From positions 1 to 64,000 of the forward strand of contig JAOACR010000019.1 of NCBI GenBank assembly GCA_026417735.1: a stretch of 64,000 nt of DNA, given 5' to 3'. Below, one piece after another: positions 25,210-35,501 of the stretch (the first letter of the stretch is position 1; each line of letters opens with the position of its first letter). Position numbers and translations under genes: made by a program. The notes under the pieces were generated by a model that did not search any database, was not told the origin of the DNA, and was given only the letters and a program-made list of their open reading frames with translations. Origin of the DNA: Kiritimatiellia bacterium (GTDB taxonomy: Bacteria > Verrucomicrobiota > Kiritimatiellia > PWTM01).

Positions 25210-26379
25210 TCAGGCGGTGGGGATCTTCACCCACTTCGCGCCCAGCTTTGACGACTTCACGACCGACTCGATGAAGAGCATCCCGCGCAGCCCTTCGTCC
25301 ACGCCCGGGAAGTCGAGCTCCAGCTCCGTCGGCTTGCGCTTCTCGATACGCGCCTGCAGCACGCTCGCGAAGTTCAGGTAGTGGTTCGCGAACGCCTCGA
25401 TGAACGCCTCCGGATGGCCGAACGGCAGACGCGTCGCGCGCGCGGCGGCGGGGCTCTTCTTGCCGATGTAACCATTGCCGCGCTTCCAGACTTCTTCCGG
25501 CGCGTCAATCCGCCGCACGTACAGGTAGTTCGGGTGCTCCTGATGCCACTCGAGGCTCGCGTTCTCGCCGTGCACCCAGATCGCGAGGTTGTTCTCCTCG
25601 CCGATCGACACCTGGCTGGCGTGCAACACGCCCTTCGCGCCGCCCTTGAACCGGAGCAGCACGTTGCCGTCGTCGTCGAGCTTGCGGCCCGGCACGAACG
25701 TGGTGAGGTCTGCGCAGACGGACTCGATCCGCAGGCCGGTGATGTACTCGGCGAGGTTCGCCGCGTGCGTGCCGATATCGCCCATGCAGCCGGCCGCGCC
25801 GCTCTGCTTCGGATCGGTGCGCCAGGCGGCCTGCATCTGCCCTTCGCGCTCGATCGGACGGGCGAGCCAGCCCTGCGGATACTGCACCACGACCTTCCGG
25901 ATCGCGCCCAGATCACCCTGGCGGACCATGTCGCGCGCGAGCTTCACCATCGGATACCCCACGTAGTTATGCATCAGCCCGAACACGCGGCCGGTGGTCT
26001 CGACGAGCTTCTTCAGCTTGCGCGCCTCGGCGACGTTCAGCGTCATCGGCTTCTCACACATCACATCGAAGCCGGCCTTCAGAAAATCGGCCGCGATCGG
26101 ATAGTGCCAGTTGTTCGGCGTCGTGATCGCGACGAAGTCAATGCGCTCCTCTGGCGGCAGCGCGCGCTCGCTGGCGATCATCGTCTTGTAGTCCGGATAG
26201 ACGCGCTTCGGATCGAGATTCAGCGCCTTGCCCTGCTGAATGCTCTTGTTCGGATCAATGTCAAACGCGCCGGCAACCAGTTCGATCAGACCGTCCAGCC
26301 GGGCCGCCTTGCGGTGCACCTCGCCGATGAACGCGCCCGGGCCTCCGCCGACCATGCCCATTCGGATTTTTCTGCTCAT
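25210..26379 (-). CDS. Gfo/Idh/MocA family oxidoreductase (cytosolic)
   Basis: 389-residue NAD(P)-dependent oxidoreductase. Rossmann motif MVGGGPGAFIG at about 9-19, TTPNNWH, the conserved CEKPMTL with its Lys, MHNYVGYP and the substrate-domain motif GDIGTHAANL are all clear. Unlike the enzyme near the left edge it has no export signal. The ATG is fixed by an excellent SD (AGGAGG about 8 nt upstream). The long upstream in-frame extension overlaps an opposite-strand gene and is rejected. Related enzymes oxidise or epimerise sugars and inositols; the substrate is unknown. Confidence 0.9.
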   Translation of the reverse strand: MSRKIRMGMVGGGPGAFIGEVHRKAARLDGLIELVAGAFDIDPNKSIQQGKALNLDPKRVYPDYKTMIASERALPPEERIDFVAITTPNNWHYPIAADFLKAGFDVMCEKPMTLNVAEARKLKKLVETTGRVFGLMHNYVGYPMVKLARDMVRQGDLGAIRKVVVQYPQGWLARPIEREGQMQAAWRTDPKQSGAAGCMGDIGTHAANLAEYITGLRIESVCADLTTFVPGRKLDDDGNVLLRFKGGAKGVLHASQVSIGEENNLAIWVHGENASLEWHQEHPNYLYVRRIDAPEEVWKRGNGYIGKKSPAAARATRLPFGHPEAFIEAFANHYLNFASVLQARIEKRKPTELELDFPGVDEGLRGMLFIESVVKSSKLGAKWVKIPTA

Positions 26380-26443: not shown

Positions 26444-27373
26444 ATGAAAAGAGGTCGCGGCCGGATCGGGCAGGCGGGGATGCTGGCAGCTGCACTGCTG
26501 GTGCAGGGGGAAACGTGCGGCGCAGCAGGCCCGCGGATCGTACCGGGTTCGCCGGCGCTGGCGGCGATCGCGTTCGAGATCGGTCTCACAGCGCAGGTGG
26601 TCGGAGTGACGCAGTGGACTCGACTGCCGCCCGGCGAGTCGCGACCGGTGGTCGGCGACGCGCATTCGTTGCACGTGGAAGCGCTGCTTGCGGTGCGGCC
26701 GGAGCTGATGGTGCTGCAGGGCGAGCCGCCCGCCGGGCTGGCGCAGGTGCGGCGACTGCGGCCCGGCTTGCGGGTGGAACGCGTCGAGCTCGAGCGCCTC
26801 GCCGACATTCCGCGCGCAGCGCGGCGGCTGCACGAGCTGGCCGGTGGCGATCCGGCGCGCCCGCCGGCGGCGGTGGAACAGTTTGAGCAAACGCTCGAGC
26901 GGTGCCGCCGACGCCCGCCGCGCGCGCACCGCCCGCGGGTGATCTTCGTCGTCGGCACGGAGCGGCCGCTGGTCGCCGGTGCGGGGACGTTTGTCGGCGA
27001 GTTGATCGAGCTGGCCGGTGCTGTGAACGCGGGCGCGGAACTGCCTGGCCGGGAGCGGTGGCGGCCGGCCGAGATGGAGCAGCTCTGGACGGCGCGGCCG
27101 GACCTGGTGTTGGTGCATGCGGCGGCCTCCGAGCGCACGGCTGCCGGCGCCTGGTGGCGACGGCGCTGGCCCGGTGCGGAGCGCGGAGCGCCGCGGATCG
27201 AAACAGTGACAGACCCGGGGTGGGTGCAACCGTCGCTTCGCACCCTCGCGCTGTTGGACGGGCTTGAGGCGTTGCTCGACGCGCAGTCGTTTCCTTCCGG
27301 CGGCGAAGGGGTTGCCCCCGGTGTCCGCGATGCGCAGGATTCGACGCGGAGCGAGGCAGGAGACGGACCATGA
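26444..27373 (+). CDS. BtuF/FhuD-like periplasmic binding protein
   Basis: 309-residue exported protein of the ABC transporter class III substrate-binding fold (helical backbone, BtuF/TroA-like). Residues 1-28 form a signal peptide. Landmarks are RIVPGSPALAAIAFEIGLTAQVVGVTQ, the LLAVRPELMVLQGEPPA segment, a middle linker with coiled charge, and FVVGTERPLVAGAGTFVGELIELAGAVN, as in vitamin B12 and siderophore binding proteins. No permease or ATPase gene is nearby. The SD AAGGAG abuts the ATG without spacing. The stop overlaps the next gene (ATGA). Ligand unknown. Confidence 0.78.
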   Translation: MKRGRGRIGQAGMLAAALLVQGETCGAAGPRIVPGSPALAAIAFEIGLTAQVVGVTQWTRLPPGESRPVVGDAHSLHVEALLAVRPELMVLQGEPPAGLAQVRRLRPGLRVERVELERLADIPRAARRLHELAGGDPARPPAAVEQFEQTLERCRRRPPRAHRPRVIFVVGTERPLVAGAGTFVGELIELAGAVNAGAELPGRERWRPAEMEQLWTARPDLVLVHAAASERTAAGAWWRRRWPGAERGAPRIETVTDPGWVQPSLRTLALLDGLEALLDAQSFPSGGEGVAPGVRDAQDSTRSEAGDGP

Positions 27374-28848
27374 ACACGGATCGACGGGGGTTTCTGATCT
27401 GCGTTGGGGTGGCCGCAGGCGTTTCGTGGCTGGGAGGCTGTCAAATGATTCGGCCCGTGGAACAAAGCGGGCCGGCGTGGAAGCTGCGCGTACGGCCGCG
27501 GGTGCGCGGCGCGTTTCTGTATCCGCCGGCCGAGGTGGTACTGGCCGGCCGCTGCGAGGACAGCTGGGCGCCGCAGCAGTGGTTCACCTGGCCGGGCAAT
27601 CAGTTCGAGCCGGATGTGCAGCGGGCGAAGTTCGAGCGGCAGATCCGGACTATCGCCCAGCGATTGGAGGTGGACGTTCGGTTAGAACCCGGCTCGTTGT
27701 ACACGGACGCGGCGATCGCCGGATGGCTCGAGGCGGCGATCGCGGACGCGCCCGACGCGCTGCTGCTGGTGAACTTCTGGAACAGTTTCAGCCCGAAGTT
27801 GAAGCCGGTACTTCAGCGCTGGACCGGTCCGGTGATCGTGTACCAGCCGGTCGGCGCGAACCATCAGCTGCCGCCGGAGTATCTGCGGCGGGCGCCTCGC
27901 GTGCAGTACATCCACTCGATCGAACACTGGGAGGCGATCGAACGGGGTCTGCGCGCAGTGCGGGCGCGGGTCGCGATGCGGGGGGCGCATCTGCTGCGCG
28001 TCAGCGGCCGCGCGGAGCGGAGGTCGGAGACCGCCGAGCCGTTCTTCGGCACGCGCATCACAACGCTACCGGCCGCAGAGTTCAACAGCCGGTTCGACGC
28101 GCAGCCGTTCACTCCGGAGCTGGAACGGCTGGTGCGGGAGGTGCGGGCGGGCGCGTCGCGCGTTACCGATCTGGGGCCGGGCGCATTCCGGGACGCGGCC
28201 CGGGCGCACCGCACTGTCGAGCGGATGCTCGAGGAGTTTGAGGCCGATGCGATCACGATCGAGTGCCTGTTTCTGAAACACCGCAAGCCGTGTCTGAGTT
28301 TTTCGCTGCTGAACAGCCGGCTGGTGGCCTGCGGCTGTGAGAATGACCTCAACGCGACGCTCACGCTGATGTTCGGCGCGGCGTGCTTCGGCCGACCGGG
28401 CTTCCAGCACAATCCCGAGTTCGACACCGAGCGCAATCTGTATTTCGGTGCGCACTGCACCTGTACGACGCGGCTGGGCGGACCCGCCACGCCGGTAATG
28501 CCCTACGCGCTGCGGCCGTTCTTCCACCAGCTGCCGAAGACCGTGGCGCTGGATGTGCAGTGGCCCGCCGGCGAACGGATCACACTGCTGAAATACCACG
28601 CGGACCGCCGCCGGCTGGACGTGTGGGGCGGGGAGTGCCTCGGATCGCCCGCCGCGCCGCCCACCGGCGGATGTGCGACCCGTGTGCTCGCGCGGCTGGA
28701 TGGCCTCGCGGACGTCTGCGACGCGTACGGCGGACCGCACCCGGTGCTGTTTCTCGGTGACTTCGTCCGCCATGCCCAGACATTTGCGCGACTGTACGAG
28801 CTGGAGACGCGCGGTCCGACGCTCTCCGCGACCGTTTCGGTTGGCTGA
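27370..28848 (+). CDS. Tat lipoprotein with L-fucose isomerase-like core
   Basis: 492-residue protein with a combined Tat signal and lipobox (TDRRGFLI ... LGGC, Cys24), so it should be exported folded and lipid-anchored. The C-terminal half resembles the FucI/AraA sugar isomerase family: a motif around ECLFLKHRKPCLSFSLLNSR, then CENDLNATLTLMFGAACFGRPGF and FGAHCTCTTRL with metal-type His/Cys, matching L-fucose isomerase-like proteins. Sugar isomerases are normally cytosolic, so an exported version is unusual. Coupled by 4-nt overlap to the BtuF-like gene. Function may be binding or isomerisation of a sugar in the periplasm. Confidence 0.75.
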   Translation: MNTDRRGFLICVGVAAGVSWLGGCQMIRPVEQSGPAWKLRVRPRVRGAFLYPPAEVVLAGRCEDSWAPQQWFTWPGNQFEPDVQRAKFERQIRTIAQRLEVDVRLEPGSLYTDAAIAGWLEAAIADAPDALLLVNFWNSFSPKLKPVLQRWTGPVIVYQPVGANHQLPPEYLRRAPRVQYIHSIEHWEAIERGLRAVRARVAMRGAHLLRVSGRAERRSETAEPFFGTRITTLPAAEFNSRFDAQPFTPELERLVREVRAGASRVTDLGPGAFRDAARAHRTVERMLEEFEADAITIECLFLKHRKPCLSFSLLNSRLVACGCENDLNATLTLMFGAACFGRPGFQHNPEFDTERNLYFGAHCTCTTRLGGPATPVMPYALRPFFHQLPKTVALDVQWPAGERITLLKYHADRRRLDVWGGECLGSPAAPPTGGCATRVLARLDGLADVCDAYGGPHPVLFLGDFVRHAQTFARLYELETRGPTLSATVSVG

Positions 28849-28906: not shown

Positions 28907-29896
28907 GTGCGGGAGCCGGCGTCCACGACGGTGATGTGCGAGCTCTGCCCCCGACAGTGTGTGCTGGGGCCGGGAGAGCGGGGGGATTGTCGGATCCGGG
29001 CGAACCTCGACGGGCGGCTCGTTGCCTTGACGTGGGGCGCGCCGTGCGCGATTCACTTGGACCCGATCGAGAAAAAACCGCTGTTTCACTTTCTGCCCGG
29101 CACCCCGATTCTTTCGATCGCGACGGCGGGCTGCAATCTGCATTGCAAGAACTGTCAGAACTGGGAAATTTCGCAGGCGAACCCGGAGGATCTGGATGTG
29201 GTGCCGCTGCCGCCCGCCGGGGTCGTCGAGCTGGCGCTGCGCGAGCGCTCCCCCTCGATTGCGTACACCTACACCGAACCGGTGGTCTGGTACGAGTACA
29301 CGCTGGACACCGCGCGGCTTGCTCGCGAACGGGGGCTGCGCAACGTGCTGGTGACCGCCGGGTACCTTCGCGAGCCACCGTTGCGTGAGCTGGCCGCAGT
29401 GACCGACGCGGCGAACATTGACCTGAAATTTATGGATGATCGCCTGTACCGCGAAATCTGCGACGGCGAACTGACGCCGATCCTTCGCGCGATCGAGCTG
29501 TTTGCGGCGCTGGGCGTGTGGGTGGAGATCACGAACCTGGTGATTCCGACGCTGAACGACCGCGATGAGGACCTGAGGGCGGTCGCGCGCTGGGTGCGCC
29601 AGACGCTCGGTCCGGATACGCCGTTGCATTACTCCGCGTTCTATCCTCAGTATCGGCTGCGCCACCTGCCGCCGACGCCGCCGGAAACGCTGCGGCGGGC
29701 TCGCGACATCGGCCGTGCGGAGGGGTTGCGGTACGTCTATGTCGGCAACGTGCACGTGCCGGAGGGCGAAGTGACGCGCTGTCCCGCTTGCGGTGCAGCG
29801 GTGGTACGGCGCGTGCGCTACACGGTGCTGGAGAACCGCGTGGTGGGCGGCGCCTGTGGCGTGTGCGCGGAGAGCATCGCGGGGGTGTGGCGATGA
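28907..29896 (+). CDS. amrS: AmmeMemoRadiSam-system radical SAM enzyme
   Basis: 329-residue radical SAM protein related to pyruvate-formate-lyase-activating enzymes. The SAM cluster motif is TAGCNLHCKNCQNWEIS (C76, C80, C83). An N-terminal Cys cluster (CELCPRQC and GDCRIR) and a C-terminal Cys-rich ribbon (CPACG ... CGVC) are typical of AmrS. In other genomes it sits with AMMECR1 and MEMO1 homologues; neither is in this window. The GTG lies 6 nt after the predicted -10, suggesting a leaderless message; an ATG at 28934 is an alternative. Reaction is not established for the family. Confidence 0.85.
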   Translation: MREPASTTVMCELCPRQCVLGPGERGDCRIRANLDGRLVALTWGAPCAIHLDPIEKKPLFHFLPGTPILSIATAGCNLHCKNCQNWEISQANPEDLDVVPLPPAGVVELALRERSPSIAYTYTEPVVWYEYTLDTARLARERGLRNVLVTAGYLREPPLRELAAVTDAANIDLKFMDDRLYREICDGELTPILRAIELFAALGVWVEITNLVIPTLNDRDEDLRAVARWVRQTLGPDTPLHYSAFYPQYRLRHLPPTPPETLRRARDIGRAEGLRYVYVGNVHVPEGEVTRCPACGAAVVRRVRYTVLENRVVGGACGVCAESIAGVWR

Positions 29897-34178: not shown

Positions 34179-35501
34179 TCAGCCGTAGTGGTGGCCGTGG
34201 ATCTTGGAGGTACGGAAGCCATAGATCGCGATGACGATGAAGCAGATCAGCGGCAGCACGAACGAGGTGCGGGTGCTTGAGAGGACCGTGAACCCGAGGT
34301 TCAGCGGGCTCTGGTCCATGATCCAGCCCTGCAGGGGCGGCATGATCGCCCCGCCGCCGATCGCCATGATCAGGCCGGCCGCGCCGAGCTTTGCGTCGTC
34401 CCCGAGGCCCTTCAGCGCGATGCCATAGATCGTCGGGAACATCAGCGACATGCACGCGGACACTGCGACCAGACAGTACAGCCCCGCCATGCCCTTGAGG
34501 AAGATCGTACCCAGAACCAGCGCCCCACCGCCCATCGCCAGCGAGAGCAGCAACCCGCCGGGGCTGAAGAACTTCAGCAGATAGGTGCAGACGAAGCGGA
34601 AGGACACGAACATCGTCATTGCGATCATGTTGTACCACTGGCCAGTTTCTTTCTTCAGCCCCAGCTCGTTTTCCGCGTACTGGATGATGAAGGTCCAGCA
34701 CATGATCTGCACGCCGACGTAGAAGGCCTGGGCGATGACACCCTCGATGTACCGGCCGTTGCGCACCAGCCGCTTCAGTGTGCCGAGAAAATCAATCTGC
34801 TTGTGGTCCTCGCCGGCGACTCGCGGCAGCCGGGAGACGACGAACAGAATCAGCACCAGCAGCACCACCACGCCCAGCCCCAGATAGGGGCCAATGATCA
34901 CGTCCAGGTCGTGCTGGGCGATTTCGTGGAACTTTTCCGGGGCCGCGGCCAGAAGCTGCCGGCGTTCGGCCTCGGTGGCGGGGTTCAGCCGGCGCAGGAT
35001 CATGTTCTTGGCGACGAGCATACCGCTCAGCGAGCCGAGCGGATTGAACGCCTGTGCAAAGTTCAGCCGCCGGGTCGCGTTTTCCTCCGCGCCCATCGCC
35101 AGCACGTAGGGGTTCGCGCTGGTTTCCAGGAACGAGAGGCCACAGGTCATGACGAAGTACGCCAGCAGAAACGCCCAGAACGCCATCAGCCAACCGGCCG
35201 GCGCAAAGAGGAAGCACCCCGCGGAGTAGAGTGCCAGGCCCATCAAAATACCTGCCTTGTACGAGAACCGTTTAATGAACAGCGCCGCCGGAATCGCCAT
35301 CACGCAGTAGCCGCCATAGAACGCAAACTGCACCAGCGAGCTTTGAAAGTTGCTGATGAGAAGAATGTTTTTGAACGCCGCGACCATCGGGTTGGTGATG
35401 TCGTTCGCGAACCCCCACAGTGCGAACAGCGAAGTGACCAAAATGAAGGGCAGCAGGATCTCCCGCGCGACGACCGGCGGATGTCGGGGTGCCTCGTTCA
35501 T
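34179..35501 (-). CDS. fucP: L-fucose:H+ symporter-type permease
   Basis: 440-residue MFS transporter with 12 membrane segments, close in size to E. coli FucP (438). Characteristic stretches are LFALWGFANDITNPMVAAFKNILLISNFQSSLVQFAFYGGYCVMAIPAAL (first helices with the substrate Asp in 'FAND'), FLETSANPYVLAMG and MSLMFPTIYGIALKGLG. FucP-type permeases import L-fucose or related 6-deoxysugars, glucose or galactose. The ATG follows a GGAG. No fucose kinase or aldolase is in the window; the isomerase-like protein at 27370-28848 is exported and so not an obvious partner. Confidence 0.9.
   Translation of the reverse strand: MNEAPRHPPVVAREILLPFILVTSLFALWGFANDITNPMVAAFKNILLISNFQSSLVQFAFYGGYCVMAIPAALFIKRFSYKAGILMGLALYSAGCFLFAPAGWLMAFWAFLLAYFVMTCGLSFLETSANPYVLAMGAEENATRRLNFAQAFNPLGSLSGMLVAKNMILRRLNPATEAERRQLLAAAPEKFHEIAQHDLDVIIGPYLGLGVVVLLVLILFVVSRLPRVAGEDHKQIDFLGTLKRLVRNGRYIEGVIAQAFYVGVQIMCWTFIIQYAENELGLKKETGQWYNMIAMTMFVSFRFVCTYLLKFFSPGGLLLSLAMGGGALVLGTIFLKGMAGLYCLVAVSACMSLMFPTIYGIALKGLGDDAKLGAAGLIMAIGGGAIMPPLQGWIMDQSPLNLGFTVLSSTRTSFVLPLICFIVIAIYGFRTSKIHGHHYG

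What the first reader, a model, noticed from the sequence alone, without database searches (positions are those of the whole stretch)
26444..28848. Binding protein coupled to an exported sugar-isomerase-like lipoprotein
The C-terminal half of the 492-residue protein resembles L-fucose isomerases, but the N-terminus has a Tat motif plus lipobox. Export of this fold is unusual. Its coupled partner is a BtuF/FhuD-like binding protein without an ABC transporter. The pair could sense or modify a sugar in the periplasm.
Basis: partly seen in the sequence, partly recalled or inferred. Interest (0 to 1): 0.5.

Follow-up and report, generated by a model that had tools for sequence, protein, structure and literature searches.

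The report
Exported relative of sugar isomerases
A bacterium and many distant relatives carry a protein, marked for export, that is shaped like the sugar-converting enzymes L-fucose and L-arabinose isomerase, which normally work inside the cell; the binding protein beside it looks like a local neighbour and not a lasting partner.

Summary
The 492-aa protein (27370-28848 +) is real and unusual; the "pair" is not a conserved unit. Its predicted structure (pLDDT 87.4) matches AraA and FucI over nearly the whole mature chain (VIA-align Z up to 29.0, next fold 12.4), though no Pfam or NCBIfam model hits it. It belongs to a family (46-76% identity to the window in 36 aligned) from Verrucomicrobiota-type bacteria, Hydrogenedentota and Planctomycetota. 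A twin-arginine signal stands in 43 of 43 copies with a complete N-terminus; a lipobox in few. E324, H362 and H457 sit at isomerase ligand positions; the acidic one (FucI D361, AraA E333) is replaced by H347-N348. A second Tat-type FucI-like family is in 28 of 36 such genomes. The window's genome also has an ordinary FucI, and FucP lies 5 kb away. The BtuF-like gene overlaps this gene only here and in one sister species; in three other genomes it lies near a divergent Gfo/Idh/MocA gene instead, and the cell has a BtuCD-like permease/ATPase without a binding protein beside it. Best reading: an exported FucI/AraA-type sugar enzyme of periplasmic glycan use; activity and substrate are inferred.

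The parts
27370..28848 (+). FucI/AraA-fold protein with export signal (492 aa), called family A here
   Evidence: fold; family
27382..27396 (+). Twin-arginine motif RRGFL (residues 5-9)
   Evidence: Sequence; RR motif in 43 of 43 family members with complete N-terminus
27430..27441 (+). Lipobox LGGC (residues 21-24)
   Evidence: Sequence; 5 of 43 rows, this one included, fit the script's lipobox pattern
28339..28341 (+). E324, aligned with FucI E337 / AraA E306 (metal ligands; names recalled)
   Evidence: Invariant in the 37 rows of A1; aligned
28408..28425 (+). H347-N348-P349-E350-F351-D352: the place of the acidic ligand (FucI D361 aligns with N348, AraA E333 with H347)
   Evidence: H347, N348, P349, F351, D352 invariant in A1; aligned
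28453..28455 (+). H362, aligned with AraA H350
   Evidence: Invariant in A1; aligned
28738..28740 (+). H457, aligned with FucI H528 / AraA H450
   Evidence: Nearly invariant in A1 (row L043 changes frame near its end); aligned
26444..27373 (+). BtuF-like periplasmic binding protein (PF01497); a neighbour, not judged part of the system
   Evidence: orthologues not joined to family A
25210..26379 (-). Gfo/Idh/MocA oxidoreductase, divergent from the BtuF-like gene; neighbour of the BtuF-like gene, not judged part of the system
   Evidence: directly divergent in 4 of 5 genomes, in the fifth (G006) with a 216-aa ORF between

Best explanation
The 492-aa protein is a metal-dependent sugar enzyme of the L-fucose/L-arabinose isomerase fold that is sent through the Tat pathway into the periplasm; in this species it is probably a lipoprotein. 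Shown by sequence and prediction: the Tat-type N-terminus, the fold, kinship by profile to FucI-like proteins, and three conserved ligand positions. Inferred: Tat is used because the protein must fold and take up its metal (Mn2+-like, by analogy) inside the cell; in the periplasm it converts an aldose freed from glycans by exported hydrolases. Because the acidic ligand/base of FucI (D361) and AraA (E333) is replaced by an invariant H-N-P-x-F-D segment, the reaction or substrate probably differs from ordinary L-fucose isomerisation, for which the genome already has a normal FucI. The BtuF-like protein is a separate corrinoid/siderophore-type binding protein whose likeliest partner is the BtuCD-like permease/ATPase elsewhere in the genome.
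For: Fold: the 41 Foldseek hits at E<=0.001 are AraA, FucI or D-arabinose isomerase chains; VIA-align Z 25.8-29.0 for these, 12.4 for the next fold. Profile: A1 against the FucI-like set A6 99.9%, E 5e-34, lining up CEND with CEGD and the AHC motifs; A6 against AraA 92.8%, against FucI 51%. Export: RR motif in 43 of 43; TatC in the genome. Second Tat-type family B: RR motif in 26 of 26 readable of 28 loci scripted, of 30 fetched; in the window's genome its first-ATG reading overlaps a sulfatase gene by 4 bp and a Gfo/Idh/MocA-like ORF with a twin-arginine start follows two ORFs on. Same-strand picks of 150 aa or more starting 0-100 bp downstream of family A, 7 loci: alpha-L-fucosidase GH29 in 2 (L041, L063), Gfo/Idh/MocA in 2 (L033, with a twin-arginine start, and L050), xylose-isomerase-like barrel in 1 (L025), penicillin amidase in 1 (L021), no Pfam in 1 (L052). 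GH29 in 36 of 36 family-A genomes searched against 36 of 55 relatives, 5 of 5 family-A holders among them included.
Against: The FucI D361/AraA E333 column is not acidic in family A. Direct profile comparison of A1 with AraA or FucI finds nothing; the link rests on intermediates and a predicted fold. Neighbours are not conserved: apart from ORFs overlapping the gene itself, the widest-spread neighbour group is in 10 of 47 rows, and it is the very common Gfo/Idh/MocA group. The fucosidase link is weak: 5 of 36 loci against 0.77 expected, GH29 was picked after looking, and L041 and L063 are both Hydrogenedentota. The window's copy has no glycan enzyme directly beside it. The genome has an ordinary FucI and FucP, so L-fucose itself needs no second isomerase. 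No coordinates were at hand to check the metal site in space.
Confidence: 0.5

Rival explanations
1. It is an exported, non-catalytic sugar-binding protein: an isomerase fold that lost a catalytic ligand and now senses or holds a sugar at the membrane.
For: The FucI D361/AraA E333 position is N348/H347 in all 37 aligned members; lipoprotein signal in this species; no fixed gene partner.
Against: 77 invariant columns across 37 rows from several phyla, many of them in the ligand region; three ligand positions are kept; only 5 of 43 members fit the lipobox pattern.
Confidence: 0.2
2. It is an enzyme, but not an aldose-ketose isomerase: the same metal site used for another reaction on a sugar or sugar acid (epimerisation, lyase chemistry or another conversion).
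For: Replaced acidic ligand plus invariant H347, N348, D352 and invariant cysteines C299, C308, C323, C363, C365; a canonical FucI is already in the same genome.
Against: No member of the fold known to me does this (recalled, not searched); the neighbours seen in some loci fit plain sugar isomerisation as well.
Confidence: 0.22
3. One reading: the binding protein and the isomerase-like protein form one periplasmic sensing or modifying unit.
For: 4-bp ATGA overlap here and in sister species G001/L019, whose isomerase-like protein is 76% identical.
Against: In G003 and G006 both genes exist but lie on different contigs, and in G002 the BtuF-like gene exists while no full-length family A match was found. 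In the fetched DNA of 45 loci only L019 has the pair. The binding protein has a likelier partner, the C18 permease/ATPase.
Confidence: 0.05

Closest known systems
L-fucose isomerase FucI (PF02952 and partners; PDB 1fui, 6k1f)
   Same: Predicted fold over nearly the whole mature chain (6k1f_A: Z 29.0, rmsd 4.4 over 423 residues); E337 and H528 kept as E324 and H457 (ligand names recalled).
   Different: 12-14% identity, 492 against about 590 residues, export signal, no Pfam hit, D361 column holds N348. The window's genome has a separate normal FucI.
L-arabinose isomerase AraA (PDB 2ajt, 4f2d, 7cwv)
   Same: Best Foldseek hits (E 3.5e-22); E306, H350, H450 kept as E324, H362, H457 (names recalled); similar length.
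   Different: 14-18% identity in the Foldseek list; E333 column holds H347; export signal.
Sulfoquinovose isomerase SftI (NCBIfam NF048012)
   Same: Best NCBIfam match of the FucI-like intermediates: L016 E 1.1e-23, family B L010 E 3.5e-15.
   Different: Far below its cut-off (83.7 and 55.7 bits against 700), and the window protein itself does not match it.
BtuF / helical-backbone binding proteins (PF01497), for the neighbour
   Same: The 309-aa neighbour matches over residues 34-229.
   Different: No transporter gene beside it; 52.5 bits against the BtuF equivalog cut-off of 234.

Membership tests
L-fucose isomerase (FucI) | FucI fold over the whole length | tested here: met
   Model residues 38-487 align to 1fui_A, Z 28.8, rmsd 4.2, 415 aligned; a prediction, not a solved structure
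L-fucose isomerase (FucI) | Pfam/NCBIfam FucI models | tested here: not met
   No hit for P0002 up to E 1; none in Pfam among 37 members up to E 10
L-fucose isomerase (FucI) | Metal ligands E337 and H528 (numbers recalled) | tested here: met
   E324 and H457 in the same alignment columns
L-fucose isomerase (FucI) | Ligand/base D361 (number recalled) | tested here: not met
   Column holds N348, invariant in A1; D352 is four residues on and could stand in, untested
L-fucose isomerase (FucI) | Isomerisation of L-fucose to L-fuculose | not testable with these tools
   Needs an assay
L-arabinose isomerase (AraA) | E306, E333, H350, H450 (numbers recalled) | tested here: not met
   Three of four kept; E333 column holds H347
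Tat-exported proteins | RR-x-F/L followed by a hydrophobic stretch at the N-terminus | tested here: met
   43 of 43 members with complete N-terminus. Pfam TAT_signal in 15 of 37 A1 rows at E up to 10, best 1.5e-4, not in the window's row; a number of rows were cut at the start
Tat-exported proteins | Actual transport by the Tat translocase | not testable with these tools
   TatC is present in the genome
Lipoprotein | Lipobox cysteine | tested here: inconclusive
   LGGC in the window; 5 of 43 rows fit the script's pattern, others have P-x-G-C or no Cys there
BtuF (P0001) | PF01497 domain | tested here: met
   58 bits against cut-off 27.5
BtuF (P0001) | Works with a BtuCD-type permease/ATPase | tested here: inconclusive
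   Two FecCD permeases and two PF01497 proteins in the genome; one set is complete at C23, the C18 permease/ATPase has no PF01497 protein beside it

The most novel reading that the evidence does not exclude
Bacteria of the Planctomycetota-Verrucomicrobiota group and Hydrogenedentota run aldose-ketose chemistry outside the cytoplasm: they export a set of FucI/AraA-fold enzymes (families A, B and a third type) through Tat, alongside Tat-exported Gfo/Idh/MocA oxidoreductases, exported sulfatases and fucosidases, so that sugars from sulfated glycans are rearranged in the periplasm before uptake.
Probability: 0.35. Interest if true: 0.7.

Novelty: new variant of a known kind. Interest (0 to 1): 0.5.

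Why it matters
Sugar isomerases of this fold are known as cytosolic enzymes (general knowledge, recalled). A conserved family with an export signal in every complete copy seen, without a Pfam or NCBIfam hit, found across several phyla and often joined by a second such family, points to a periplasmic step in glycan use that these annotation libraries do not name. It is directly testable: the protein can be made without its signal and the candidate ligands are named.

Tried and rejected
Sequence search of PDB with P0002 gave only chance-level hits (best E 0.27), with profile A1 none. Direct hhalign of A1 with AraA and FucI alignments: no match; only intermediates gave it. A cobalamin riboswitch or other Rfam RNA near the BtuF-like gene or the permeases: none at gathering score, tRNAs only. 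A link of family A with the AmmeMemoRadiSam radical SAM gene downstream (28907-29896): dropped, because the sister locus L019 has a queuine tRNA-ribosyltransferase there. Conserved neighbours in general: none found (the last two list only the 25 commonest families). Transfer between phyla: a quick tree of 36 rows (L043 left out) needs 5 changes of phylum label, the least possible, with 5 rows unlabelled and some weak forks, Verrucomicrobiota support 66; so no sign of it, not proof against it. Folds absent from the VIA-align list were not pursued.

Papers: seven searches of the held library. Four returned none; of the other three I saw titles and abstract starts of 20 of 146, 1 of 1 and 12 of 29 papers, and no title spoke of an exported FucI-like protein. 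Of PMC7356697 I saw the listing and passages (12 of 22 places). Papers outside that library were not searched.

The GH29 statistics assume evenly spread genes, use 36 of the 45 loci (the other nine genomes were not searched) and chose the family after neighbours had been seen; L041 and L063 may be one event. The co-occurrence of families A and B follows kinship in part, and some genomes have up to 13 FucI-like matches, so it is not an independent test.

Rows left out: A1 holds 36 of the 45 loci; left out were L035, L036, L039, L048, L056, L059, L060, L061 and L063 (cut, flagged with an in-frame stop, or not chosen). Row L043, whose frame changes near its end, stayed in A1 and so in the structure job.

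Full report
Observation. The window has two overlapping ORFs on the + strand, 26444-27373 (309 aa) and 27370-28848 (492 aa), sharing ATGA. The first matches Peripla_BP_2 (E 1.2e-15). The second matches nothing in Pfam or NCBIfam up to E 1 and only chance-level PDB sequences (best E 0.27). It starts with RRGFL, a hydrophobic stretch and LGGC.

Family. A scan of genome contigs found 45 loci encoding relatives; the record titles name Verrucomicrobia, Kiritimatiellae, Lentisphaerae, Hydrogenedentota/Hydrogenedentes, several planctomycete groups and one Omnitrophota. I aligned 37 sequences (the window plus 36 of the 45) as A1; identities to the window protein are 46-76%. Of the window plus 45 loci, three (L048, L060, L063) lack the N-terminus; all 43 others show a twin-arginine motif followed by a hydrophobic stretch. 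For L037 the script picked a second RR; the true one is visible. Row G003, started too late, appears to be the same contig as L030 and is not counted. Five rows, the window's included, fit a lipobox pattern. Among 58 relatives searched, own genome included, 5 hold a full-length member at 55-100% identity: G000, G001, G003, G006, G013. A quick tree groups the labelled rows by phylum, which fits descent rather than recent spread.

Fold. The predicted structure has mean pLDDT 87.4 and pTM 0.87; residues 20-33, 75-77 and 487-492 are poor. The 41 Foldseek hits at E<=0.001 are AraA, FucI or D-arabinose isomerase. VIA-align gives Z 29.0 for FucI 6k1f_A (rmsd 4.4, 423 aligned) and 25.8-27.3 for AraA; the next fold, type II dehydroquinase, has 12.4 over 130 residues. 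So the likeness covers nearly the whole mature chain, not only its C-terminal half.

Sequence link and site. Eleven FucI-like proteins found by weak similarity in relatives were aligned as A6. A1 against A6: 99.9%, E 5.1e-34 over 285 columns. A6 against AraA: 92.8%, E 4e-7; A6 against FucI: 51%, E 1.5e-4. These E-values are for single comparisons. A1 against either directly: nothing. One member of A6, L016, passes the Pfam Fucose_iso_C cut-off. In a joint MAFFT alignment E324 falls with FucI E337 and AraA E306, H362 with AraA H350, and H457 with FucI H528 and AraA H450 (ligand numbers recalled). FucI D361 falls with N348 and AraA E333 with H347. The family-B rows keep an Asp at the D361 column. 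So three positions are kept and the acidic one is not; D352, invariant in A1, could stand in, which I could not test.

Other exported relatives. The genome has a second FucI-like protein (family B, L010, C18:75082-76623) with its own RR motif. At E<=1e-100 family B is in 6 of 55 relatives (G000, G001 in broken pieces, G002, G003, G006, G013), which include the 5 holders of family A, and in 28 of 36 family-A genomes reached through loci (two of these 36 look the same as G006 and G013). Of 30 family-B loci fetched, 28 were scripted, 26 were readable, and 26 of 26 have the RR motif. A third type in G003, G006 and G013 has it too, while L007, L008, L009, L014 and L016 show no such start. In the window's genome family B, read from its first ATG, overlaps a sulfatase gene by 4 bp and is followed by a WbsX-type ORF (Pfam) and by an ORF with a twin-arginine start that is 27% identical to the window's Gfo/Idh/MocA protein over 129 residues. 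The genome's ordinary FucI (PF02952 match) has no signal by eye and lies between a GH29 gene and an ORF that reads as a Tat-type Gfo/Idh/MocA, with an AraC-like ORF opposite (my reading of the translations). FucP, above its NCBIfam cut-off (553 bits against 280), lies in the window at 34179-35501 (-). The cell thus seems to have a normal L-fucose route, which speaks against family A being simply its L-fucose isomerase.

Neighbours of family A. No neighbour is conserved. In the 7 loci with a same-strand pick of 150 aa or more starting 0-100 bp downstream (L021, L025, L033, L041, L050, L052, L063; picks by a crude longest-ORF rule), 5 of 7 are of kinds that act on sugars: GH29 twice, Gfo/Idh/MocA twice, xylose-isomerase-like barrel once (L063 by a local profile). 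GH29 lies within the fetched DNA of 5 of 36 loci against 0.77 expected. GH29 occurs in 36 of 36 of those genomes and in 36 of 55 relatives. This fits glycan use but is a loose link.

The binding protein. Closer relatives of P0001 exist in G001 (61%), G006 (49%), G002 (48%) and G003 (46%); a partial one in G012 (41%) was not looked at further. A Gfo/Idh/MocA gene 83.5-95.4% identical to the window's lies divergently near it in all four: directly in G001, G002 and G003, and in G006 with a 216-aa ORF between. Only in the window and G001 does family A follow. In G002 and G003 an adenylosuccinate-lyase-like ORF follows in the opposite sense, and in G006 a polysaccharide-deacetylase-like ORF (my reading of the translations). 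The window's genome has two FecCD permeases and two Peripla_BP_2 proteins. One pair is adjacent at C23; the C18 permease with its ATPase has none beside it, and its best NCBIfam model is BtuC, below cut-off (167.9 of 461 bits). P0001 is the only unpaired candidate in this 96.8% complete genome. E. coli btuF is likewise apart from btuCD (recalled).

Conclusion. The isomerase-like half of the finding stands and is broader than described: a FucI/AraA-fold family with an export signal in every complete copy seen. The pair does not stand. What the enzyme does is inferred; the altered ligand position leaves real room for another substrate, another reaction, or a binding role.

Noticed in passing
25210-26379 (-): Gfo/Idh/MocA oxidoreductase, 83.5-95.4% identical in four relatives and divergently near the BtuF-like gene in each; a lasting gene neighbourhood of unknown purpose.
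   Followed up: partly
28907-29896 (+): AmmeMemoRadiSam radical SAM enzyme (TIGR04337, 370.4 bits against 220) downstream of family A; the sister species has another gene there.
   Followed up: partly
34179-35501 (-): L-fucose:H+ symporter FucP (TIGR00885, 553 bits against 280; PDB 3o7q E 1.5e-72).
   Followed up: yes
L065:6503-12215: Sulfatase, Tat-type FucI-like family B, WbsX-type ORF and a Tat-type Gfo/Idh/MocA-like ORF in a row in the window's genome.
   Followed up: partly
L033:8001-10765: Family A gene followed 21 bp on by a Gfo/Idh/MocA gene whose twin-arginine start resembles that of family A.
   Followed up: partly
G078, G080, G082, G092: Genomes with 11-13 FucI-like matches each (reached through planctomycete loci L044, L046, L049, L062): a large unexamined expansion.
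   Followed up: no
G001:C1:28220-29737: Family B is in three pieces with an internal stop in the sister species: pseudogene or assembly error.
   Followed up: no
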